A DNA stretch of 64,000 bases from a virus. Under the pieces are notes generated by a model, which was given only the letters and a program-made list of their open reading frames with translations, was not told the origin of the DNA and did no database searches. Positions 27,327 through 55,180 of the stretch are shown piece by piece. The stretch lies in the IMG/VR virus record IMGVR_UViG_3300013004_000026, positions 104,428 to 168,427 of that record. One strand, given 5' to 3'. Numbering within the stretch: position 1 is the stretch's first letter; each line of letters begins with the position of its first letter. A program made the translations under genes and the position numbers.

Positions 27327-28451
27327 TTATAAGCTGAATCCTTTGAATGTATCGTTAGTGACATCTTGTTTTGTGCCACCAATCACATAAGTAGTTATCT
27401 CTGTTTCCTGGGGGGCAACTTGAACTTCTGCTCCAGCAATCCATTTTTGTGTCCACGGCAGTGGATTACTGCCAGTCTTGATATGGCACTTGAGACCCAC
27501 GCTGTTCATGCGCTTGCAGGTCAGCCAATCAATATAATCGCAGAGTAGTTGCTCATTGAGACCAATCATGCTGCCATCTTTGAACAAATACTTTGCCCAG
27601 TCTTTTTCTTGAGCAGCGGCTTGCAAAAACATGTCTTCGCATTCCTGCAAAGTTTCTTCCTTGATCTTGGCAAAGTCATGATCATCCTGCGGTAGTATTT
27701 TCAACAGAGTTTGTGTTGCACCCAGATGCACATTCTCATCGCGACAGATGAGTTTGATAATCTTGGCATTGCCTTCCATCTTCTTGAGTTCTGCAAATGC
27801 CCAGGAGCAGGCAAAACTCACATAAAATCTTATGCCTTCTAAGGCGTTTACAGAATTTATTGCCAACCATAACTTTTTCTTAAGATCATAAAGATCAATC
27901 TTGATTTCTTTACCGTTCACAGTATGAGTACCGGCTCCCAGTAGGTTGTAGTAGCTGCCGTACTCTATCACATCATCATAGTATTTGCTGATGTCTTTGG
28001 CACAATCCATGATAGGTTGTATTTCCATGAGCTCATCAAAAATAATACTTGGGTCGCTGTAGACATTTCGTATGATGTGAGTATAACTGCGACTATGTAC
28101 TGTTTCGTTAAAGGTCCAAGTGGCAATCCAAGTTTCTAATTCTGGTAAGCTGCACAACGGTCCAAATGCTGCACTGGGCGCACGACCTTGCACACTGTCT
28201 AGCAGAATCTGTCGTTTGAGATTGCTGGTAAAAATATGTTGTTCAAATGGAGTTAGTTCTTTGAAATCCTTGCTGTCATGTCCCACATCAATTTCTTCAG
28301 GGCGCCAAAAAAAGCCAAGTTGTTTATCTGTTAGTTTATCAAATTGTCTATACTTGAGAGTATCAAATCGTTGGATGGTAACACCACCGTTGGGATCTAA
28401 AAAAGCCAAACTGTCCACATGGGACTTCTTATTAATATTAAAAATTGACAC
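27327..28451 (-). CDS. nrdB: Ribonucleotide reductase class Ia, beta subunit
   Basis: 374 residues, GTG start with AAGGA upstream. All di-iron and radical residues are visible: LLDSVQGRAP (Asp ligand), NETVHSRSYTH (Glu, His and the radical Tyr, spaced as in E. coli E115-H118-Y122), an E in the ALEGIRFYVSF helix, and RDENVHL (Glu/His). Provides the tyrosyl radical for dNTP synthesis. Close to the E. coli type (ELETWIATWTF), so acquired from or shared with proteobacteria. Confidence 0.96.
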   Translation of the reverse strand: MSIFNINKKSHVDSLAFLDPNGGVTIQRFDTLKYRQFDKLTDKQLGFFWRPEEIDVGHDSKDFKELTPFEQHIFTSNLKRQILLDSVQGRAPSAAFGPLCSLPELETWIATWTFNETVHSRSYTHIIRNVYSDPSIIFDELMEIQPIMDCAKDISKYYDDVIEYGSYYNLLGAGTHTVNGKEIKIDLYDLKKKLWLAINSVNALEGIRFYVSFACSWAFAELKKMEGNAKIIKLICRDENVHLGATQTLLKILPQDDHDFAKIKEETLQECEDMFLQAAAQEKDWAKYLFKDGSMIGLNEQLLCDYIDWLTCKRMNSVGLKCHIKTGSNPLPWTQKWIAGAEVQVAPQETEITTYVIGGTKQDVTNDTFKGFSL

Positions 28452-45121: not shown

Positions 45122-46519
45122 TTATCTTGCCTGGGCTTTGATGCCAGCCAGCATGCTTTTTAACTTGTTTGAACCCAGTTCCGCTTGTGCTGAAGCAGTC
45201 GATTCAGCAGTGTCAGGCTCCACAGTGCTTTTGGTTTTGATTTGATTCATGATATTCAGTGCCTGTGGACGATGTGAATCCCCTTGTTGATCTTCGGGCA
45301 AGTCTGTGATACGCAAACTTTCCATATTGTATTCTAGATCAACCTTTTGGCCAACCCCACTGCTGCTACGAGTTTTCATTAACTGTATTTGATAGCGTCC
45401 GCGCTCTTTCATGGCTCTTGAAGTAAAGATACCAAACACATTATCTGCTGTGTTAATCTTACTGATACCACCAGAGATATGACTGTGGTCAAATTCAATT
45501 TCTTCCACAGCACTGCGATTCAACTGACTTGCAGTGATCAACAGTATGTTGAACTCTTTGGCCAAATTGCGTAGTTCTTCACTCACATACTTGTCTTTTA
45601 CAAACAGATCGTTTGGTGATACCTTGGCACTCACTGGCATGAGCAAGTCCAGATAGTCTACCATTATGTAGTCTGTTTTCATTCCGGTTTGCACTTGCAA
45701 TTCTTTTAGATATGCACGAATGTCATTGATGTTGCTTTGTGCTGGCATGTATTTGATGCGCATTGCTCCGGCCTTTTTACCTACCAGCTTGATCTTCATT
45801 TCTACTGTGTCAATATCTTTGAAGATTTCACGAGTGCTCACATTGGCCAACATGCTATCTATGCGCATGGCACACAGGCCTTCACTGAGTTCTAGTGTTA
45901 GATACACACCATTGAGTCCTGCTAGTGACCAGTTACACGCAATGTTTTGCATGAACAAGGATTTACCTGATCCAGACCCGCCTGCAAAGATGTTGAGTTC
46001 GCCTCGGTTCATGCCGCCAAACAGTTTCTTGTCCATGGCAGGCCAGCCAGTACTGATTTGTCCGTTGCCTTCTCTGATGGCCATTAGTCGTCCACGAGGA
46101 TCAGCAAAATAGTCAGTGCCCATGTCTTTGGTCAAACTAATCTGCACAGCATCTTTGATCAGTTTTTCCACAGGATTGAACTCGCCTTTTTCAATCAAAT
46201 CTGCTGCTTTGAGGATGGCTCGTTCAAGTTCTTTTTGTTTGGTAAAACTTTCAAACTCTTCCATAAACCAATCAAAATGCCCGTCGCCTAGATCTGGAAT
46301 GCTTCGTAGTTCAACCCCAGTGACTGCTCGCACCTGTTCTAATGTGGGTAGAGTTTTGTGTTTGTCTGAGTGTTCTTTGACAAACTTGGCCACACTTCTG
46401 AGACTGCGGTCAAAGTTTTCATCATTGTAGATGTTTTGCACACGCACAAAACTCTGTGCGTCATGCAGCATCATTTCAAGAAAGAGTTTTTGTATTTCTG
46501 TATTATATTCTTTAATCAT
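45122..46519 (-). CDS. Replicative DNA helicase (T4 gp41/DnaB-like)
   Basis: 465 residues. RecA-type core: TGWPAMDKKLFGGMNRGELNI, Walker A GGSGSGKS, YLTLELSE (H1a region), 'YIMVDYLDLL' Walker B, and 'LLITASQLNRSAVEE' with the H3 Gln motif. The N-terminal ~160 residues form the helicase's collar. Like T4 gp41 it unwinds the fork while bound to primase. Overlaps the radical-SAM gene by 4 bp in a translationally coupled run. Confidence 0.93.
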   Translation of the reverse strand: MIKEYNTEIQKLFLEMMLHDAQSFVRVQNIYNDENFDRSLRSVAKFVKEHSDKHKTLPTLEQVRAVTGVELRSIPDLGDGHFDWFMEEFESFTKQKELERAILKAADLIEKGEFNPVEKLIKDAVQISLTKDMGTDYFADPRGRLMAIREGNGQISTGWPAMDKKLFGGMNRGELNIFAGGSGSGKSLFMQNIACNWSLAGLNGVYLTLELSEGLCAMRIDSMLANVSTREIFKDIDTVEMKIKLVGKKAGAMRIKYMPAQSNINDIRAYLKELQVQTGMKTDYIMVDYLDLLMPVSAKVSPNDLFVKDKYVSEELRNLAKEFNILLITASQLNRSAVEEIEFDHSHISGGISKINTADNVFGIFTSRAMKERGRYQIQLMKTRSSSGVGQKVDLEYNMESLRITDLPEDQQGDSHRPQALNIMNQIKTKSTVEPDTAESTASAQAELGSNKLKSMLAGIKAQAR

Positions 46520-47382
46520 AATTGCCTACAAGTATAACTGCAAACTGGCTGCGGATCAAATTGCATTTGCTCATCATACTGTCCCAACTGAGTCAACACT
46601 TGACTCAGCGTAGTGTTACTTATATTGTATGCTGCTGAGTCAGTGTGGAACTTGCTGCGATAATAGAATCTATGATCAGCTGCATAACAACATGGTGCGT
46701 ATTGTCCACTTGCACTGATATAGTGTTGATTGCCCACAGAACACTTTGGTTGTATCAATCCTGCACCTCTATGCCATATTAAAGTTTGTGACTGCGGACG
46801 CAGAGGATCTGTTTCTGCAAAACGATTGCTGGGATCTAGTTTTACATCGTGCATGCCTAGATCTTTGGCCATTTGTTGTATGGCAGGAATTTCGTGTTCA
46901 TTGAAACTAAAAGGCACCACTTTCCACACAGCTCTAGCGTCAGAATTTGCAACTGACTGTATGCCTTGTGCAATGGTGCTCCAATCACTGTTCACACGAT
47001 ATTTTACACTACTGTCTGGCAAACCGTCGATACTAAATTCCACAATGTCAGCTGGTGTCAGCATGCCCACCCAGGACTCCCACCAGGCACGATCTCTGTA
47101 GCTGCCATTGGTAGTGAGTACAATACGGCCTTGATTACTTTTTATAAACATTATCAAGTCACGCAGGTGTTCGTAGTAGATAGGATCTCCTGTGTTGCCG
47201 CAGATGCCCCAGGTAAGATTGGCAATGTCCACATCCAAGAAACTTTTCAGTGCTGATAGATCAAGATCTTGATTGTGCCAGTTCTTTCTACCAAACTGCT
47301 GAATAAATTGAGTGCGTTCACAGGCAGAGCATGCTAACACACATCTGTTGGTGGGTTCTAAATGAAAGCCGGAGATTTTCAT
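46516..47382 (-). CDS. Radical-SAM enzyme
   Basis: 288 residues. C14-x3-C18-x2-C21 (NRCVLACSAC) binds the SAM [4Fe-4S] cluster; WGICGNTGDPIYYEHL is the glycine-rich motif. A C-terminal cysteine set (CSVGNQHY, APCCYAADH, VCSYTC) suggests a SPASM-like auxiliary cluster, typical of peptide- or nucleotide-modifying members. It sits between primase and helicase with 4-bp overlaps on both sides, so it is made with the replisome. Substrate unknown; could act on DNA bases or a peptide. Confidence 0.85.
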   Translation of the reverse strand: MKISGFHLEPTNRCVLACSACERTQFIQQFGRKNWHNQDLDLSALKSFLDVDIANLTWGICGNTGDPIYYEHLRDLIMFIKSNQGRIVLTTNGSYRDRAWWESWVGMLTPADIVEFSIDGLPDSSVKYRVNSDWSTIAQGIQSVANSDARAVWKVVPFSFNEHEIPAIQQMAKDLGMHDVKLDPSNRFAETDPLRPQSQTLIWHRGAGLIQPKCSVGNQHYISASGQYAPCCYAADHRFYYRSKFHTDSAAYNISNTTLSQVLTQLGQYDEQMQFDPQPVCSYTCRQL

Positions 47383-48470
47383 TGCTTGCTCTTTAGTTTA
47401 ATTTTCACAGGATTTTTTTCTACTGCGTCAATGATACTTTTGAGCACAAACAATTTGCCATACTTTTTAACTGCATCAGCCACATCCTTGCACTCGGGGT
47501 CTTCCCGCCAGATAGGAAAACTCACTGCCCAGCCATATTCTATTGCACGGTTTACCAAAGCTTCTCCTGGCCACACTTCTTTACCACGCTTGTCCACATG
47601 ACGATCAAAGTCAGGAACCACAATGATATCTCTGCCAAGATCTTCAATGATTTCTGCCTGTGTTTCGCTGATGTCATTGCTCAATGTAGCCACGCCGTCC
47701 ACTGCCATGGCATCAAAGGGACCTTCAACCACCAACACAAACTTGGCATTGGGTTGTTGCATGTTGGTATTGAAAACATAATTAGATTCGTAATTGCTGT
47801 GGTATTTTGGTTTCACATCAGGTGTCACTGCTCTAGCTGTGTAACCAATCAGTTGATCACGCCAGAAGAATGGTACAATCACACGCCGGTGTAGATTATA
47901 GCTGGTGTCCGCAGTGAGATAAAAGTCATACTTGTTTTGAATTCTTCGTTCATGCAAATACTCAGCTGCTTCTATCAACTGTTCGCCAGCAAGATTCAGT
48001 ATCTGCGATTCTTGAACAAGTCCGTTTTTATCATAGTCAACCTTGAGTCTAATCATAGTACATAGCTGTGCTATGCTTACACTTTCTTCAGGCAACGCAC
48101 GAGGTTTGAAAGTGATGTCCACTGGTGGTGGCGCTGCATGGTCATCTGCAGGCATACTTTCTTTGAGTCGCAGAGCTTCCATGACCAGTCGTTGCACAGT
48201 GTTATCATCTGCGCCTAGCCATTTGAGTAGTTTACGGAATTTGAATCCCAGTGGACGCCCTGGATAGAACCCTGTTTTGAATCCGCAGTTGAAGCAATGG
48301 TAACTCACACTTCCGTCGGCGTTGGGCAGCATTCCACCTCGTCCTCTGGTGTCAGCTGATTCGCCGTTGTGTGAGCAACACACAGCATTAAAACTAATCC
48401 AGCGAGAACTGTTCTTGCGCTTGGGCGGCAACAAGGACAATATTTCCTGCTGAACTAGATTATTATTCAT
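47379..48470 (-). CDS. DNA primase (T4 gp61-like)
   Basis: 363 residues from the second of two tandem ATGs (48470). Zinc-finger cysteines (VCCSHN, CFNCGF), TOPRIM domain with VVEGPFDAMAV and the VVPDFDRH Asp motif, and 'IGYTARAV' between. Makes RNA primers for lagging-strand synthesis with the helicase encoded downstream. The promoter geometry places transcription start at this ATG; the ATG at 48473 has too short a leader to be preferred. Confidence 0.93.
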   Translation of the reverse strand: MNNNLVQQEILSLLPPKRKNSSRWISFNAVCCSHNGESADTRGRGGMLPNADGSVSYHCFNCGFKTGFYPGRPLGFKFRKLLKWLGADDNTVQRLVMEALRLKESMPADDHAAPPPVDITFKPRALPEESVSIAQLCTMIRLKVDYDKNGLVQESQILNLAGEQLIEAAEYLHERRIQNKYDFYLTADTSYNLHRRVIVPFFWRDQLIGYTARAVTPDVKPKYHSNYESNYVFNTNMQQPNAKFVLVVEGPFDAMAVDGVATLSNDISETQAEIIEDLGRDIIVVPDFDRHVDKRGKEVWPGEALVNRAIEYGWAVSFPIWREDPECKDVADAVKKYGKLFVLKSIIDAVEKNPVKIKLKSKQ

Positions 48471-48476
48471 CATGCA

Positions 48477-48554: not shown

Positions 48555-48929
48555 GTGGACGACCAGTTAAAAGAATTTATCAAAAAATATCCTTTTATAA
48601 GCTATGTGGTGTATGGTGGCAATGAATACATTGGCATTATACAAAATGTGGATGATATTCTAACCACCGTGTATGATTTTGGTAGCCTGCGCACAGAACA
48701 AGAAAAAGCATTGTTTCTTAATCTAGGCGACCAATGGTGGTGGGAAAGCAATCGTACCATTCCTATCAATGTGTTTCTGAGGCAGGACTGGGTACCTTTT
48801 AGATACTCACTGAAAACCATGAACAGCCGTGATGTGGTAATCAAATTTGGCCCTTATATAAGTCTCAAAGAGATAGCCGCCAAGAAAACCAAACGCCGTT
48901 CAATTGTGTTGGTTCGCAAAACTGATTAG
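48555..48929 (+). CDS. Hypothetical protein (124 aa), GTG start
   Basis: Single plus-strand gene converging on the miniature DnaE-like gene (30-bp 3' overlap). GTG start with GGATT about 12 nt upstream. Beta-rich N-terminus (FISYVVYGGNEYIGIIQNVDDILTTVYDF) reminiscent of a PilZ/Sm-like small barrel, then a WWWES aromatic patch. Function unknown; proteins of this shape occur in T4-like phages. Confidence 0.6.
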   Translation: MDDQLKEFIKKYPFISYVVYGGNEYIGIIQNVDDILTTVYDFGSLRTEQEKALFLNLGDQWWWESNRTIPINVFLRQDWVPFRYSLKTMNSRDVVIKFGPYISLKEIAAKKTKRRSIVLVRKTD

Positions 48930-49490
48930 ATTCATATTCACCACAACCAAGTGCGCATAGGCAACTGCGTGACTTTTCTTGAAATAGTATGCACCGTCGT
49001 CGGGTCGTGTCCAAACATGTTTGGCAACTTCGCTCCAGGCCATGCCGGTTAGATTTCTTTTGGCAGGTCTAATCACACTCAAAAACATAGCCAACCTAGG
49101 AATAGTATCCACAGGTTCTGGCATACGCTTCAACAAGTCCCAGTGATTGTTCACATGAATAAGTTGTTCAAAAAACGCCTTATCAGTGTTAAAACGCTGC
49201 CAGTTGGGGGTAGAATTCATTAATTCTACCAGGTGTGCTTCGTCTTGCACCTGACGGTACAAGTTTACATTGATAAAATCAAGTTTGAGATATCCACGAT
49301 CTTCAGCCTGTTCATAATCTAGACTGGCCAGTCCTGTGAACGGATCTGCAGGAATCATGGTAGGATGCACACCTGTGTTGTGTGCAGACAGTGCATCGTT
49401 GCGACGCAAGCTGGCAGGTGTGTGTTTGATCAATTGCAGTATTTGTTCGCGGTCTGCAAAGTCAATGTCAATATCTGATTGGAACTTCAT
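48900..49490 (-). CDS. Miniature DnaE-like protein (DNA polymerase III alpha core remnant)
   Basis: 196 residues. SDIDIDFADRE (5-14) matches the DnaE palm motif with its two catalytic aspartates (DIDIDF), LKLDFINVNL (68-77) matches 'VKFDFLGL' with the third Asp (D71), AMFLSVIRPA resembles 'LALYRPGP', and FKKSHAVAYAH (170-180) matches the fingers motif 'NKSHAAAYA'. All are in DnaE order but in one sixth of its length. PHP domain, thumb and clamp-binding tail are missing. A polymerase-derived accessory or regulator is possible; catalysis alone seems unlikely. Confidence 0.6.
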   Translation of the reverse strand: MKFQSDIDIDFADREQILQLIKHTPASLRRNDALSAHNTGVHPTMIPADPFTGLASLDYEQAEDRGYLKLDFINVNLYRQVQDEAHLVELMNSTPNWQRFNTDKAFFEQLIHVNNHWDLLKRMPEPVDTIPRLAMFLSVIRPAKRNLTGMAWSEVAKHVWTRPDDGAYYFKKSHAVAYAHLVVVNMNLISFANQHN

Positions 49491-50188
49491 AGCCCTGCCT
49501 CCCCAAGTACATGTTTACACCACTCTGCGTCTGCCATGTAGTCTTGTAGCTTGCGATTCCAATAATCAGGATCAATCCAAGGCAGAACAACAGCCAAAAG
49601 ACTTTGGTCAAGACTGCCAAGAAAATCAACGCCACTAGCGCAATTAAACAATAGCCAAGGACTAATCCTACCGGTAGTAACATGGTGACAAACACGACTA
49701 GCATTAGCATAGCGAAAGTAATCACAAAACCCGTTTTTAAGATCTGGATGAGTGTCTGCATAGTTTTGCATTTCTTTTAGGCCGCGCTCAAGTGCGTCTT
49801 GCACATTCTCTTTGCGCAGATACTGCATGAGCCATTCTTCATAGAAACTGTCCTTGCACCAATGATCCAATTTCTTGTTTTGCTTCAACAACCATTCCAG
49901 ATAGTCTATGGAATTTATTGCACGAACACCAACCAGATGCCGGCCAAATTTAACAAATGCACCATAGTATGGACTGGTTACAAAATCCTCATAACTTTTT
50001 AGTCGAGCACTGCCCTGTGTGACTTCATAAAAGCGCAGATAAGAACGAAGTCCCAGTTGCACTCCTGCTTCTTTTTCCTGCTGCCAGCGTCTTTTTTGCT
50101 CGCAGAGATGTGCTGCAAGTGTAGACTCCTTGCGGAATTCTGTGTTGCAATACCGACATTTATAACTCTGCTTTGATTCGTTTGTCAT
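49487..50188 (-). CDS. Zinc-finger phage protein (233 aa)
   Basis: Starts at ATG 50188. N-terminal C2H2-type finger (YKCRYCNTEFRKESTLAAHLCEQ) followed by an aromatic helical domain (YEDFVTSPYYGAFVKFGRHL, WIDPDYWNRKLQDYM). Likely nucleic-acid binding. Lies between the DnaE-like gene (ATGA overlap) and a possible clamp-loader-like gene, in the replication region. Exact role unknown. Confidence 0.6.
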   Translation of the reverse strand: MTNESKQSYKCRYCNTEFRKESTLAAHLCEQKRRWQQEKEAGVQLGLRSYLRFYEVTQGSARLKSYEDFVTSPYYGAFVKFGRHLVGVRAINSIDYLEWLLKQNKKLDHWCKDSFYEEWLMQYLRKENVQDALERGLKEMQNYADTHPDLKNGFCDYFRYANASRVCHHVTTGRISPWLLFNCASGVDFLGSLDQSLLAVVLPWIDPDYWNRKLQDYMADAEWCKHVLGEAGL

Positions 50189-50627
50189 CCCAACCCAACT
50201 CCCGGGCTTTTTTGATAAGGTCTTGTTTGTTGTTGAGCTTGGCCATGAGTTCAATTTCATCTCTCTTGAGGTGTGGATACAATGCAGCAAGAAACTTCAG
50301 ATGTTTGTTTTCATAACCTGAATTCTTTTTCTTGTTTGCAATCCACTGATGTTTGAATGTACCAATGCCTGGGCTCACTGCTGTGGCGCACAGCCATTGT
50401 AACTTAGGGTGTTTGGCTATGTCAAAAAAATTCTTGTTGAGATTTTGATTACAGCTCATCACATAGTAGGCTTGAATATTGCCAGCGGCCTGCACCTGAC
50501 TGCTCCAACGCAGCATGAGATATGTGCTGAATTTTTTGCGTTCTTCGTCAGTGAGCTCGTCATAGAACAGAGTGTTCTTACGATCCAACTGTGCCATTTC
50601 GTTATTGATATTCAGTTTGTCGCTCAT
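50160..50627 (-). CDS. Replication-region protein (clamp-loader small-subunit-like?)
   Basis: 155 residues. Helical throughout (DRKNTLFYDELTDEERKKFSTYLMLRWSSQV, 'NLNKNFFDIAKHPKLQWLC', 'YPHLKRDEIELMAKLNNKQDL'). Size, charge and location fit the gp62-type small clamp-loader subunit of T4-like phages, but no diagnostic motif is visible. It could also be an unrelated helical adaptor. Overlaps neighbours by 4 and 29 bp. Confidence 0.35.
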   Translation of the reverse strand: MSDKLNINNEMAQLDRKNTLFYDELTDEERKKFSTYLMLRWSSQVQAAGNIQAYYVMSCNQNLNKNFFDIAKHPKLQWLCATAVSPGIGTFKHQWIANKKKNSGYENKHLKFLAALYPHLKRDEIELMAKLNNKQDLIKKARELGWDDKRIKAEL

Positions 50628-50839
50628 GTTTTACTCAACCTATACACTATTTTAACACGATCAAGTGCATCTTGCAAGGCAGGATTATACGGTGCACGAA
50701 ACATTGCGTCAATTATCTCTGGGAGATCATATAAACTTTCGGCATGTACCATTTCTCTAAGATCTGGATTCTTGATCCATACTTCGTGTTCATCCTCACC
50801 GTGATGAATATTGATTGTGGTAAAATCTTTGATGATCAT
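50624..50839 (-). CDS. Small phage protein (71 aa)
   Basis: Acidic/His-rich start (FTTINIHHGEDEHEVWIKNPDLREM) and an amphipathic helical end. ATGA overlap with the previous gene and 1-bp overlap with the cupin gene. Function unknown. Confidence 0.55.
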   Translation of the reverse strand: MIIKDFTTINIHHGEDEHEVWIKNPDLREMVHAESLYDLPEIIDAMFRAPYNPALQDALDRVKIVYRLSKT

Positions 50840-51183
50840 CAGTGATTCCGTTTGCCATCAAACACACAATTAAATATCAAATGCATTTCCCCGTCATTGA
50901 TTACTCGATGAAATGCACCGTCTGGGATAAGAACAATATCACCTGACTTTACATCAAAAGGTTCGTCTGTTTCGTTGCCCACAATCATTTTACCATAGCC
51001 CTGCACAAACAAGTATACTTCCTCTTGACCCGCATGTCTATGACCTCTGGTGCTTTGTCCCCGGTAAAGTTTTGTCGAACTTAGCACCAGATTGTTCAAT
51101 GTTTTGTTGTCTTTGAGCAAGTAGGTTTCGTTGTCTTTGACAACTTCGCCGCCCACATCATGAATGTTATATCTCAAGTTCAT
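50839..51183 (-). CDS. Cupin-domain protein
   Basis: 114 residues. Cupin motif 1 RGHRHAGQEEVYLFVQGYG (His-x-His...Glu metal ligands) and motif 2 SGDIVLIPDGAFHRVIN (Pro-Gly-like turn, His). Single small cupin, as in sugar-nucleotide isomerases and epimerases, or metal-binding sensor proteins. ATGA-coupled to the PIG-L gene, so it may act in the same sugar pathway. Confidence 0.85.
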   Translation of the reverse strand: MNLRYNIHDVGGEVVKDNETYLLKDNKTLNNLVLSSTKLYRGQSTRGHRHAGQEEVYLFVQGYGKMIVGNETDEPFDVKSGDIVLIPDGAFHRVINDGEMHLIFNCVFDGKRNH

Positions 51184-51719
51184 AGCAGTTCCTTGGCTTT
51201 GTCATCTATGTAGTATTGGCATCTTTGTTCAAGATCAAAATTTGTAATGACAGCATGGTGCAAAGGTAATCTTGGCATTTGATCTCTAGGTCTGGCACTA
51301 GAGTGATTATGGAAAAATCCATGTCCAAAATAAACCTTGGGCTGCGGCAGGCGTTGGGCCACTGAGTGTAATAACACATGATGCACATGTTTGTATTCGC
51401 CAATGGCATTATGAGTCAGTACTAGATCAAATTGCACTCCTGTGTCGATCAATTTACTCAACACTGCAACTTCATCATTTTGATTGCTCAACGGCACCTT
51501 GTCCTGAAAGCCCAAAAAACATGTGGTGATATTTTGCTGACGCCAGTAACTGGCAATCTCTTGTGCCCTGTCACTGTTTTCGTCGTAGGTAAGATACACA
51601 ATGGTCCAATCCAGTTGTTTTTGTTCTAGCAAAAATGCCTGAGCAAATATCACACAATCGTCAGGATGCGCCACAAGGCACAATCCTTTTTTACTTTTAC
51701 CTTTGATCCAATTAAACAT
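51180..51719 (-). CDS. PIG-L/LmbE-type N-acetylglucosaminyl deacetylase
   Basis: 179 residues from ATG 51719 (TAATG overlap with the previous stop; an upstream TTG is rejected). AHPDDCVIF supplies the zinc-binding AHPDD, and THNAIGEYKHVHHVLLH the second histidine motif (HxxH). Removes acetyl groups from GlcNAc-type sugars or similar compounds. Beside the cupin and glycosyltransferase genes, it likely modifies host surface or phage DNA glycans. Confidence 0.88.
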   Translation of the reverse strand: MFNWIKGKSKKGLCLVAHPDDCVIFAQAFLLEQKQLDWTIVYLTYDENSDRAQEIASYWRQQNITTCFLGFQDKVPLSNQNDEVAVLSKLIDTGVQFDLVLTHNAIGEYKHVHHVLLHSVAQRLPQPKVYFGHGFFHNHSSARPRDQMPRLPLHHAVITNFDLEQRCQYYIDDKAKELL

Positions 51720-52219
51720 TACCAAACCTTTCCGTAATCAACTACCTCACACTGTCTGCTGATATCTTTAACAAAGTATGCGCACACAGGATTGTCTCCT
51801 GCTGTGAGTGGTACTGCAAGCAACTGCCCGGGCCTGAGCTTGGGGAAATACCACTTGGTGTCATGATATATATCTACAATTTCAATTGGAAAAAACTCTG
51901 GCTTAAAACTTTTTAGTGGATTGAATGTAAACACGCTGAAGCCACGATCATTAATACTGGTCAATGGCACAACTTCTAGGTCACCGAAGTCATGTTCACC
52001 AATAAGCACTTGCCAATCCACTGGCATTTTGATTGTGTGTGGCCCAATACGCAGCACCAGAGCAGGGCTGTTGAAACTTTCTAAAAATATCAATGGTATG
52101 TAAAAGTAATCAGGGTCCTTAGGATTGCTGTTATCAAATACACAAAATCTCAAATCCTCTACTTCGTCTGGAATTTCGTCCATCTCAAACGCTTGATTAT
52201 CCAGCGTTAAAATTCTCAT
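51719..52219 (-). CDS. Hypothetical beta-rich phage protein (166 aa)
   Basis: Starts MRILTLDNQAFEMDEIPDEVEDLRF, then strands with Pro/Tyr/Phe (YFYIPLIFLESFNSPALVLRIG, FFPIEIVDIYHDTKWYFPKLRPGQLLAVPLTAG). No active-site pattern. Its coupling to the PIG-L and glycosyltransferase genes places it in the same operon. Function unknown. Confidence 0.55.
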   Translation of the reverse strand: MRILTLDNQAFEMDEIPDEVEDLRFCVFDNSNPKDPDYFYIPLIFLESFNSPALVLRIGPHTIKMPVDWQVLIGEHDFGDLEVVPLTSINDRGFSVFTFNPLKSFKPEFFPIEIVDIYHDTKWYFPKLRPGQLLAVPLTAGDNPVCAYFVKDISRQCEVVDYGKVW

Positions 52220-52221
52220 AA

Positions 52222-52995
52222 TTATTTTCCTCTTCTTAAATCTTTATTGCAGGATACCTTGATCAAGAATCCTTCTCTAGGACTGTGCAACCTATACTGC
52301 TTCAATAACAAATTGTTTTTTTCAAGCCAAGCGCTCATCAATGCATATTCTGTAAACATGGCCTTGTGATTGATTTGCAACATCAGGAGCTGTGGAAACA
52401 GAGCGCCGCATTGTTGCTTTAGATATGTTATCATGTTTTGCACTGAGTGTGTATGACAAGGACACACACTGGCTTCTCTAGTTCTTAGAGCAACTGTGTG
52501 TTCTGTAAAACGCAGTCCCATGAAATCATATGCATGTTCATATTGACTACGATGATGCGAATTTGGGCCAAACCAAGCGTCTTGTGGATCATGTATAGGC
52601 AATGCTTGTAGCATACTCTGTCCTTGAGTATCAACAAAATCATTGTATGCAAGATTACCAAAATAAAAATCCTTGCTGTCATTGATCACATACCATTCTG
52701 TTCTGATCAATTCAGCAGCAATAATCTTGAGTTGTTGTTGGCTTTGCCAATCATATGCACTCTGTTCTGGCCATATGCTGTTGCTCCACAGGTGTCGTAT
52801 GGGTAGCATTGAAAATTGTTGCACTACAGATTCAAACTCAGGCAGATATCTGTAATGATCGTTGAATATCAACAGCACTTCTTCTAAATCATCTCTATTG
52901 CAGTGAGTCACCAGACTGCGAAGATAACGAGATAACAACAACAGGTCTTTGCTGCAAGTAACCACCACAAAGGTTAACTTGTTGGCTATTGCCAT
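52222..52995 (-). CDS. Glycosyltransferase-like protein (DUF6492 type)
   Basis: 257 residues. Starts with a GT-A-like strand FVVVTCSKDLLLLSRYLRSL and has YVINDSKDFYFGN in place of the DxD motif, plus a His/Asn-rich middle (IHDPQDAWFGPNSHHRSQYEHAYDFMGLRF), as in the DUF6492 group of predicted glycosyltransferases. Likely transfers sugars in a surface glycan. Start overlaps UvsW's stop by 10 bp. Confidence 0.65.
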   Translation of the reverse strand: MAIANKLTFVVVTCSKDLLLLSRYLRSLVTHCNRDDLEEVLLIFNDHYRYLPEFESVVQQFSMLPIRHLWSNSIWPEQSAYDWQSQQQLKIIAAELIRTEWYVINDSKDFYFGNLAYNDFVDTQGQSMLQALPIHDPQDAWFGPNSHHRSQYEHAYDFMGLRFTEHTVALRTREASVCPCHTHSVQNMITYLKQQCGALFPQLLMLQINHKAMFTEYALMSAWLEKNNLLLKQYRLHSPREGFLIKVSCNKDLRRGK

Positions 52996-54440
52996 TCGGA
53001 CTTCTCCACAGCAAATGGATAGTTGGCTTCTCTATAGAACGCCTTGCGTTTGGTAAGGTGCCGTTTGGCAAATTTACAGGTACTGGTCAAATCCCAGATT
53101 TGTACAAAGTCTTTGTCTTCTGCTTTCCTAATACCTCTTCCAATAGATTGTATAACCCTAACAAAGCTCTTTCCGGGTTCCACAAGAACCAAATTAAATA
53201 TCCTAGGAATATTAATGCCCACAGCGGCCACACCATAAGTCGCCACAATAACCTTGCCGTGTGCGGTAGCCACCTCATTGTACTCATCTTGACGATCTGT
53301 AGCTTTCGTTGCCCCCGATATGAATACTGCATCTTTGATCCTCTCAGTTAATGCTTGACCAGCTGCCACACGATCAACCAGGATGAGAGTGTTGCCGCTT
53401 TCGCGAATACCTTGTACCAGTTGAGCCATGTAGTCTAATCTACCAGCTGTCTCCAATAGGTATTTAAGTTCGCTTTGATAATTGTTGTACTCAACATGAT
53501 CTGCAAGCTGAACAATGTTCACATGACATTGTGCTAGATGACCAGCTTCTTGCAGTGTTGCTGCTTTCAAACTGCCTACTACCTCACCAATGGCACACTT
53601 GATTGACATGAACTCATATTCTTCTTTGGGTATAGTTCCTGTAAGTCCCCAACGAATTGGAATGTGACTCATTACACCTGTCAGCAGAGTTTTCAGTGCA
53701 TCTGCTTTGGCCATGTGTACTTCATCCACAATAACACACACCACATCTTCCAGGAACTCGCCGATGGTAATGTCAGCTTCTTGGTTCTTGGTATTCTTGA
53801 GCAACACATTTAGGCTCTGCCAGGTACAAATAGTGTGCTGACGACCAAACTCTTTTCTATCTCCGTAGAACACACCTACATCTAACTGCATGTTGATATA
53901 ATCAAGCTCTGTTTGTGTGACCAGACTCTTGTTGGGCACTATGACTATGGAGCGACCGTACTGACTCACTGCGTCACTGAGCGCGGCTGTGATCACTGTT
54001 TTGCCTGCACCAGTGGCCACTTCTTGTACACTTTGTGGATTCTCAAAAAAGCGATTGATAATTTCAGCCTGATAGTCTCTGAGACGCATGGGTTGGCCTA
54101 CCATGGGGTGTCCCTTGGGCCAGGCAATATGACTGTAGCTGTCTTCAGTTATCTGCTTGAATTCAAAGTTGGTTTTATACTCTCTAGTATCATTGACTTC
54201 GATGTTGTAGCCTTGCTGACCCAGATAAGACAATATCTCTGGCAATAGATTGATGTAGGTGCTGCCGCCCAATTGGAAAAAACCCACCTTGCCATCCCAC
54301 CGCCCTAGTCGCACTGCCGGCAGATATCTAGCCCCAGGAATTTCGTACTTGTACTTGTTGGCAAGCTCTCGCCTGTCTGAAAGTTCTAGTCCTTCGATCT
54401 TGACATTGACTTCGTCACGGATAATTAGTTTAGCAAACAT
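52986..54440 (-). CDS. uvsW: UvsW-type SF2 DNA/RNA helicase
   Basis: 484 residues. MRLRDYQAEIINRFFE Q-motif, EVATGAGKTVI Walker A, VVCVIVDEVHMAKAD (DEVH box), 'RWGLTGTIPKE' motif III, and GTGRGIRK-like C-terminal motif VI (QSIGRGIRKAED). An N-terminal ~110-residue domain precedes them as in T4 UvsW, which unwinds branched DNA and R-loops and shifts replication initiation. Predicted leaderless transcript from a terminator-nested promoter. Confidence 0.95.
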   Translation of the reverse strand: MFAKLIIRDEVNVKIEGLELSDRRELANKYKYEIPGARYLPAVRLGRWDGKVGFFQLGGSTYINLLPEILSYLGQQGYNIEVNDTREYKTNFEFKQITEDSYSHIAWPKGHPMVGQPMRLRDYQAEIINRFFENPQSVQEVATGAGKTVITAALSDAVSQYGRSIVIVPNKSLVTQTELDYINMQLDVGVFYGDRKEFGRQHTICTWQSLNVLLKNTKNQEADITIGEFLEDVVCVIVDEVHMAKADALKTLLTGVMSHIPIRWGLTGTIPKEEYEFMSIKCAIGEVVGSLKAATLQEAGHLAQCHVNIVQLADHVEYNNYQSELKYLLETAGRLDYMAQLVQGIRESGNTLILVDRVAAGQALTERIKDAVFISGATKATDRQDEYNEVATAHGKVIVATYGVAAVGINIPRIFNLVLVEPGKSFVRVIQSIGRGIRKAEDKDFVQIWDLTSTCKFAKRHLTKRKAFYREANYPFAVEKSEWQ

Positions 54441-54446
54441 GTTGTA

Positions 54447-54476
54447 ATTTTAACACAAAAGCAACAGGCAAATCAA
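54447..54476 (-). promoter_or_regulatory. Sigma-70-like promoter of uvsW, leaderless geometry
   Basis: Minus strand: TTGATT (54476-54471), 18-bp spacer, TAAAAT (54452-54447), then 6 nt to the ATG at 54440. The -35 lies in the loop of a terminator-like hairpin. Confidence 0.5.
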
Positions 54477-54484
54477 CCTGTTGC
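54461..54484 (-). terminator. Terminator-like hairpin of the 2OG-oxygenase gene
   Basis: Perfect 8-bp stem GCAACAGG/CCTGTTGC around an 8-nt loop, then TTTTG. It starts in the last codons of the gene ending at 54473 and overlaps the uvsW promoter. T tract is short, so efficiency is doubtful. Confidence 0.5.
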
Positions 54485-55180
54485 GCAGAGTTTTTCATAA
54501 CTTTTCTCAATCAAATCTTTCATTTGTTTGTCATGACTTTGATATATTGTGATGTGCAGTCTAGTGTAAGGAGTAGGGTTAACCACAGCATGCCTGCAGC
54601 CAACATTGATCATAAACGCTTTACCGTTTTCAAATGGCACGATTCCTGCACCTTCAACTGCAAACTCACAGCCCTGTGGATGATCAATGGCAATGTTAAT
54701 ATTGTCTAGTCCATGACAATCATCTTTGTGCAACCCTATCACTCCATTGGGCTCTAACCCCAACAGTCTAATCTTGTGAAACTGAGCATGCGGCCATTGT
54801 TCCTGTAGATATTTTACTGTGTTGGGCATGAGAGTCAGGGCCTGCGCTGTCCAATCATTGACACCCTGCACAGGACCATGATAGTCGCCTGGATCTTCTG
54901 CTCCACGACTGTAGATGCCAAGGTTGGTCCAGCCATGACTGTCATGGCTGGTAATAGGCTGTGCCAGCATGTGAGGCATGGCAGCACGAGCTTCTTGCTG
55001 AATCATGTGCCAGGGTATTTCAATATCCAGTGGCAAGTAAGGCAACCCACTCTGCCAACATATCCAATCACTGTTGGCTTGATCCACGCGGGGCACCTGT
55101 AGAGAATCTGTTCTTACACTGCGCAGGAACGCCTGTGTTATTCCCGGCTGATGAGCAAACTCACTTACTTCTTTTCGCAT
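54473..55180 (-). CDS. Aspartyl/asparaginyl beta-hydroxylase-like 2OG-Fe(II) oxygenase
   Basis: 235 residues. The double-stranded beta-helix core shows IRLLGLEPNGVIGLHKDDCH (His-x-Asp iron pair: H and D of GLHKDD), 'NINIAIDHPQGCEFAVEG' and VGCRHAVVNPTPYTRLHITIY (distal His, Arg for 2-oxoglutarate). These follow the Asp/Arg hydroxylase family. Hydroxylates Asp/Asn in proteins or a small molecule; target unknown. TAATG overlap with the gene upstream. Confidence 0.8.
   Translation of the reverse strand: MRKEVSEFAHQPGITQAFLRSVRTDSLQVPRVDQANSDWICWQSGLPYLPLDIEIPWHMIQQEARAAMPHMLAQPITSHDSHGWTNLGIYSRGAEDPGDYHGPVQGVNDWTAQALTLMPNTVKYLQEQWPHAQFHKIRLLGLEPNGVIGLHKDDCHGLDNINIAIDHPQGCEFAVEGAGIVPFENGKAFMINVGCRHAVVNPTPYTRLHITIYQSHDKQMKDLIEKSYEKLCATG

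What the first reader, a model, noticed from the sequence alone, without database searches (positions are those of the whole stretch)
48900..49490. A 196-residue miniature of the DnaE polymerase core
DIDIDF, LKLDF (third catalytic Asp), a VIRPA segment and FKKSHAVAYA occur in the same order as in bacterial DNA polymerase III alpha, where these motifs span hundreds of residues. The palm and fingers cores seem fused with nearly everything else removed. Such a protein might inhibit or decoy host Pol III, bind its partners, or be an unusual catalytic remnant.
Basis: partly seen in the sequence, partly recalled or inferred. Interest (0 to 1): 0.78.

Follow-up and report, generated by a model that had tools for sequence, protein, structure and literature searches.

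The report
Half of a split phage polymerase
The small gene is one of two separately encoded pieces of a stripped-down bacterial-type DNA polymerase carried by giant T4-like phages; its missing half lies about 125,000 bases away in the same phage, and a 2021 survey had already described such split polymerases, although I found no laboratory test of one.

Summary
ORF 48900-49490 (-), 196 aa, carries the DnaE motifs in DnaE order. Its predicted fold (pLDDT 90) aligns over about 190 residues with E. coli DnaE 397-784 and with PolC; only C-family polymerases score clearly. It is not a complete miniature: it lacks the first part of the palm, with the GRGS triphosphate-binding motif. That part is a second, 170-aa protein in the same phage record (G000:27627-28130), about 125 kb away, whose modelled fold maps to E. 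coli DnaE 278-393. The pieces tile the catalytic core with a 3-4 residue gap, minus thumb, most of the fingers, PHP and clamp/tau domains. The cut is at the same place in all 96 distinct N-halves; the catalytic positions are invariant in 78 distinct C-halves. Both halves occur in 11 of 12 records over 280 kb, all with a family B polymerase, always at least 30 kb apart. Best reading: a two-subunit, probably active, minimal Pol III alpha, auxiliary to the family B replicase. Iyer et al. 2021 (PMC7824862) already described this split enzyme, so this is a new member of a known kind. The decoy/inhibitor idea is not supported. Assembly and activity are untested.

The parts
48900..49490 (-). C-terminal subunit of the split minimal Pol III alpha (PHROG 11778), 196 aa. 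The partner N-terminal subunit lies outside the window at G000:C1:27627-28130 (-).
   Evidence: PHROG 11778 E=4.7e-54; AF2 pLDDT 89.9; structural alignment to E. coli DnaE 397-784; partner found.
49458..49478 (-). Codons 5-11, SDIDIDF: D6 and D8 correspond to E. coli DnaE D401 and D403.
   Evidence: D6, D8, D10 invariant in 78 of 78 distinct C-halves; hhalign 6-22 to 401-419.
49275..49289 (-). Codons 68-72, LKLDF: K69 and D71 correspond to E. coli K553 and D555 (third metal-binding Asp).
   Evidence: K69 and D71 invariant in 78 of 78; aligned to VKFDF.
49062..49076 (-). Codons 139-143, VIRPA: corresponds to FRPGP of DnaE (638-642).
   Evidence: I140, R141, P142 invariant in 78 of 78; hhalign segment 32-154 to 506-652.
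48954..48983 (-). Codons 170-179, FKKSHAVAYA: fingers motif FNKSHSAAYA of DnaE (756-765).
   Evidence: F170, K171, H174, Y178 invariant in 78 of 78; hhalign 152-186 to 738-774.
48555..48929 (+). Convergent neighbour, PHROG 11637, unknown function; overlaps the C-half tail to tail by 30 bases. Conserved companion, not shown to be part of the enzyme.
   Evidence: PHROG 11637 E=8.8e-32; 96 of 97 loci, always opposite strand.
49487..50083 (-). Upstream gene (PHROG 11058, unknown function; the ORF as listed extends to 50290 and its true start is uncertain); its stop overlaps the ATG of the C-half as ATGA.
   Evidence: PHROG 11058 E=2.3e-40; 85 of 96 loci, same strand.
47379..48473 (-). DNA primase (T4 gp61 type), replication-cluster context.
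   Evidence: PHROG 47 E=1.6e-31; 50 of 56 loci.
45122..46519 (-). DnaB-like replicative helicase (T4 gp41 type), replication-cluster context.
   Evidence: PHROG 19 E=1.6e-72, Pfam DnaB_C; 37 of 40 loci.
52986..54440 (-). UvsW-like DNA helicase, replication-cluster context.
   Evidence: PHROG 16 E=8.9e-74; 40 of 42 loci.

Best explanation
The ORF encodes the C-terminal subunit of a two-piece, minimal family C DNA polymerase (Pol III alpha type) of a T4-like jumbo phage. The N-terminal subunit (PHROG 11127, 170 aa, G000:C1:27627-28130 minus strand, outside the window) supplies the start of the palm with the GRGS triphosphate-binding motif; the ORF supplies the catalytic Asp residues and the remaining fingers motif. 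Shown by computation: homology, tiling of the DnaE core, a constant cut site, invariant catalytic residues, co-occurrence of the halves. Inferred: the halves associate non-covalently into one active site; the pair is active; with no thumb or clamp-binding domain it is weakly processive and does short-patch synthesis (gap filling, primer replacement or repair) beside the family B replicase.
For: Fold of the C-half: 190 residues on PolC 968-1296 (Z 9.4), E. coli DnaE 397-784, all 14 top entries C-family. Fold of the N-half: residues 71-170 on E. coli 278-393, Z up to 11.9, 13 C-family entries versus 2.2 for the next. Profile scores far above shuffles for both. N-half passes Pfam PF07733 cut-off. 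Stop codon 29-31 residues after GRGS in all 96 distinct N-halves with the motif; D6, D8, D71, K69, H37, R141, K144, F170, K171, H174, Y178 invariant in 78 C-halves. Both halves in 11 of 12 records over 280 kb and in the own record. C-half in the uvsW-primase-helicase cluster, N-half near a clamp loader. Family B polymerase in the same phage. Independent proposal by Iyer et al. 2021.
Against: No experiment shows assembly or activity. No two-chain prediction could be run. The loss of the thumb and most of the fingers may leave too little for templated synthesis. Z of 8-9 for the C-half is moderate. One 288-kb record has the N-half without a detected C-half (G004), though it may be incomplete. 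The halves are never neighbours in the genome.
Confidence: 0.72

Rival explanations
1. The two halves form an active nucleotidyltransferase that is not a templated DNA polymerase (for example end-tailing, or nucleotidylation of RNA or protein).
For: Catalytic residues are invariant but the thumb and most of the fingers are gone. Family C palms belong to the Pol beta-like nucleotidyltransferase superfamily (established knowledge), which has many small non-polymerase members.
Against: The RPxK and FKxxH fingers positions are kept without exception, and the gene sits in a replication cluster.
Confidence: 0.15
2. The protein is a decoy or inhibitor of host Pol III.
For: Sequence resemblance to host DnaE.
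Against: Invariant catalytic residues, none of the clamp, tau or PHP/epsilon-binding domains, an accompanying conserved N-half, a constant place in the phage's replication cluster.
Confidence: 0.04
3. A structural, non-catalytic subunit of the phage replisome (for example an adaptor for PolB or primase).
For: Cluster with primase and helicase; a family B polymerase is already present.
Against: A scaffold would not need the metal-binding Asp residues and the GRGS motif, which never vary.
Confidence: 0.07
4. The 196-residue protein is a complete enzyme by itself, and the N-half gene has another role.
For: It keeps the three catalytic Asp residues and models confidently as a single chain.
Against: It lacks the GRGS part of the palm, which is conserved as a partner gene in nearly all complete records.
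Confidence: 0.02

Closest known systems
Split minimal DNA polymerase III alpha of group 2.2 jumbo phages (Iyer et al. 2021, PMC7824862); PHROG 11778 + PHROG 11127
   Same: Two standalone proteins encoded far apart, one with the NTP-binding and one with the Mg/template-binding part, in phages that also carry a family B polymerase.
   Different: No difference in kind found. This phage is an uncultivated IMG/VR member; its C-half is at most 47% identical to the sequenced isolates. That the paper's C-terminal piece is PHROG 11778 is inferred from its text; the figure could not be read.
Bacterial DnaE / PolC (DNA polymerase III alpha)
   Same: Palm and fingers motifs in the same order; fold aligned over about 190 (C-half) and 96 (N-half) residues.
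   Different: Cut in two between E. coli 393 and 397; no PHP, thumb, most of the fingers, little finger, OB or tau-binding parts; 366 aa in total against 1160.
Cyanobacterial split DnaE (dnaE-n/dnaE-c, from general knowledge)
   Same: Pol III alpha encoded by two distant genes.
   Different: There the halves are full-size and are joined by protein trans-splicing through a split intein. Here the N-half ends 0-2 residues after the EFLK end and the C-half starts 5 residues before DIDIDF, leaving no room for an intein.
Microbacterium phage Aesir DnaE (gp55/gp56)
   Same: Phage DnaE in two genes.
   Different: Adjacent genes, and the cut lies before the palm rather than inside it (position inferred from the match).

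Membership tests
Split minimal Pol III alpha of jumbo phages (Iyer et al. 2021) | C-terminal piece with the Mg-binding Asp residues as a standalone protein | tested here: met
   196 aa, D6/D8/D71 present and invariant in 78; PHROG 11778.
Split minimal Pol III alpha of jumbo phages (Iyer et al. 2021) | N-terminal NTP-binding piece as a separate, distant gene in the same phage | tested here: met
   G000:27627-28130, 125 kb away; PHROG 11127; PF07733 over cut-off.
Split minimal Pol III alpha of jumbo phages (Iyer et al. 2021) | Accompanied by a family B DNA polymerase | tested here: met
   Not in the own 168-kb record, but an overlapping contig 99.99% identical over 40 kb has an 885-aa PolB with DTDS and SLYP just past the record end.
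Split minimal Pol III alpha of jumbo phages (Iyer et al. 2021) | The two pieces assemble into one catalytic enzyme | not testable with these tools
   Proposed, not shown, in the paper; needs purified proteins or a two-chain prediction.
Family C DNA polymerase (DnaE/PolC) | Pol III alpha palm/fingers fold | tested here: met
   only C-family entries stand out for both halves.
Family C DNA polymerase (DnaE/PolC) | Single chain with PHP, thumb, fingers, clamp- and tau-binding regions | tested here: not met
   Two chains, 170 and 196 aa; no counterpart of E. coli 420-505 or 653-737, nor of anything after 784. So it is a derived relative, not an ordinary DnaE.
Family C DNA polymerase (DnaE/PolC) | Templated DNA synthesis | not testable with these tools
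   Needs an enzyme assay of the pair.
Host Pol III inhibitor/decoy | Binds a host replisome part | not testable with these tools
   Regions known to make those contacts in DnaE are absent from the protein.

The most novel reading that the evidence does not exclude
Two separately encoded proteins totalling about 366 residues assemble non-covalently into an active, thumbless family C DNA polymerase working beside a family B replicase in one phage: an extremely reduced member of the bacterial replicase family and a natural split enzyme cut inside its palm domain.
Probability: 0.6. Interest if true: 0.7.

Novelty: new member of a known kind. Interest (0 to 1): 0.42.

Why it matters
If the pair is active, it marks how little is needed for the chemistry of the bacterial replicase and shows a polymerase palm assembled from two chains. 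It would test the proposal by Iyer et al. that such forms resemble ancestral Pol III. The exact subunit boundaries and invariant residues given here make a simple co-expression test possible.

Tried and rejected
phmmer with the single protein and hmmsearch with the C-half profile found nothing among PDB sequences, and Pfam gave nothing for the C-half; the large deletions probably explain this, since profile-profile and fold comparison worked. A single E. coli DnaE sequence matched only the FKKSH segment. PolB was sought in the own record with PF00136 and with Atu_ph07 proteins and not found, because the record ends about 2 kb before it. A fusion of the two halves in one ORF was looked for and not found. 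An intein was rejected because there is no extra sequence at the junction. The scan of bacterial genomes found seven loci, all in MAG contigs, some long and possibly mis-binned phage (not followed).

Full report
Observation. They correspond to E. coli DnaE 400-406, 552-556, 638-642 and 756-765 in the same order. The protein is PHROG 11778, 'DNA polymerase' (E=4.7e-54). It has relatives in 63 phage records, mostly jumbo phages such as Atu_ph07, Phosso, PA5oct, RaK2, 121Q and CBB, and in 77 IMG/VR loci.

Homology to DnaE. The family profile against a DnaE profile built from E. coli and ten phage DnaE proteins gives three colinear segments: residues 6-22 to 401-419, 32-154 to 506-652, and 152-186 to 738-774. 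The best score is 52.2, against at most 25.5 in 200 column shuffles. AlphaFold2 gives mean pLDDT 89.9 and pTM 0.70. The structural second look aligns 190 residues with PolC (Z 9.4, rmsd 3.6), 192 with Taq DnaE (Z 9.3) and 188 with E. coli DnaE 397-784 (Z 8.4). Fourteen C-family entries at Z 5.8-9.4 stand above unrelated ones at Z 3.4 or less. Z of 8-9 is moderate in itself; coverage of the whole chain, colinear motifs and the exclusive set of matches carry the claim.

It is only half. The matched part begins just before the catalytic PDIDxDF; the preceding palm part with GRGS is missing. Iyer et al. 2021 reported that group 2.2 jumbo phages carry a minimal Pol III alpha split into two proteins encoded far apart (PMC7824862). 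That their C-terminal piece is PHROG 11778 is my inference from the text, as the figure could not be read. The N-half of Atu_ph07 is gp316. A homologue is in this phage's own record at 27627-28130 (-), 170 aa, about 125 kb from the ORF. It is PHROG 11127, passes the Pfam PF07733 cut-off and scores 81.6 against the DnaE profile versus 25.2 at most in shuffles. Its model (pLDDT 88) aligns residues 71-170 with E. coli 278-393, Mtb 305-413 and PolC 823-964. The pieces tile the core with a gap of three to four residues in every reference structure: E. coli 393/397, Mtb 413/417, Taq 455/458, PolC 964/968.

Conserved cut and catalytic residues. In all 96 distinct N-halves that hold the motif, the stop codon falls 29-31 residues after GRGS, and no ORF runs on into DIDIDF. 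In 78 distinct C-halves D6, D8, D10, H37, G40, P47, K69, D71, Y78, W97, I140, R141, P142, K144, F170, K171, H174 and Y178 never vary. D6, D8 and D71 correspond to the metal-binding D401, D403 and D555 of E. coli (residue roles from established knowledge). The N-half keeps G136, G138, R139, G140 and S141. Continued catalysis predicts this; a decoy or scaffold does not need it.

What has been lost. About a dozen residues replace E. coli 420-505 (the thumb region), E. coli 653-737 in the fingers has no counterpart, and the PHP, little finger, OB and tau parts are absent. The joint size is 366 aa.

Co-occurrence. Of twelve records over 280 kb, eleven have both halves and one 288-kb record has only the N-half; all twelve have a family B polymerase. 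The records were chosen because they held one half, so the informative figure is how often the other turns up. The halves lie from 30 kb (Vibrio phage 2.275.O) to over 200 kb apart in record coordinates and are never adjacent. The own record lacks PolB, but an overlapping contig, 99.99% identical over 40 kb, carries an intact 885-aa PolB with DTDS and SLYP motifs about 2 kb beyond the record end, and a clamp loader-like gene 1.5 kb from the N-half.

Gene context. The C-half sits between a uvsW-like helicase and primase-helicase: uvsW 40/42 loci, primase 50/56, helicase 37/40, upstream PHROG 11058 in 85/96, convergent PHROG 11637 in 96/97 on the opposite strand (annotated phages). In the window the upstream stop and the start codon overlap as ATGA, suggesting translational coupling (inference). 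The N-half lies by MazG, a GroES-like gene and the clamp loader.

Mechanism. Best reading (0.72): the two chains assemble into one Pol III-type active site. Shown: homology, tiling, conservation, co-occurrence. Inferred: physical association, activity and role. Without thumb or clamp contact it is probably distributive, suiting gap filling or repair beside PolB. Iyer et al. suggested synthesis of one strand or repair.

Prior knowledge and novelty. The split enzyme was described by Iyer et al. 2021. The CBB genome paper noted a truncated 172-aa alpha subunit (CBB_328) and the Atu_ph07 paper a Pol III alpha (gp316); both are the N-half. I found no experimental study in the library searched. This locus is a new member of that kind. 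What is added is the partner gene in this phage, the constant cut site, the invariant residues, the counted co-occurrence and two fold models.

Noticed in passing
48555-48929 (+): Convergent unknown gene (PHROG 11637) found tail to tail with the C-half in 96 of 97 loci, always on the opposite strand. Such a fixed antisense neighbour is unexplained.
   Followed up: partly
49487-50627 (-): Two unknown genes (PHROG 11058 and 11758) precede the C-half in most relatives (85/96 and 66/70 loci); possible further subunits.
   Followed up: partly
46516-47382 (-): Radical SAM/SPASM-like gene between primase and helicase, not seen at that place in the annotated relatives.
   Followed up: no
50839-51725 (-): Cupin and PIG-L deacetylase-like genes inserted in the replication cluster; the cupin gene is in only 12 of 68 loci.
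   Followed up: no
54473-55180 (-): Aspartyl/asparaginyl beta-hydroxylase-like gene (PF05118, E=9e-13) close to the uvsW-like helicase.
   Followed up: no
L252:1-2598: Microbacterium phage Aesir has its DnaE in two adjacent genes, cut before the palm, a different split from the one studied here.
   Followed up: no
L242, L244, L245: C-half relatives in contigs binned as Neomarinimicrobiota and Thiotrichales MAGs; the long ones may be jumbo phage contigs mis-binned.
   Followed up: no
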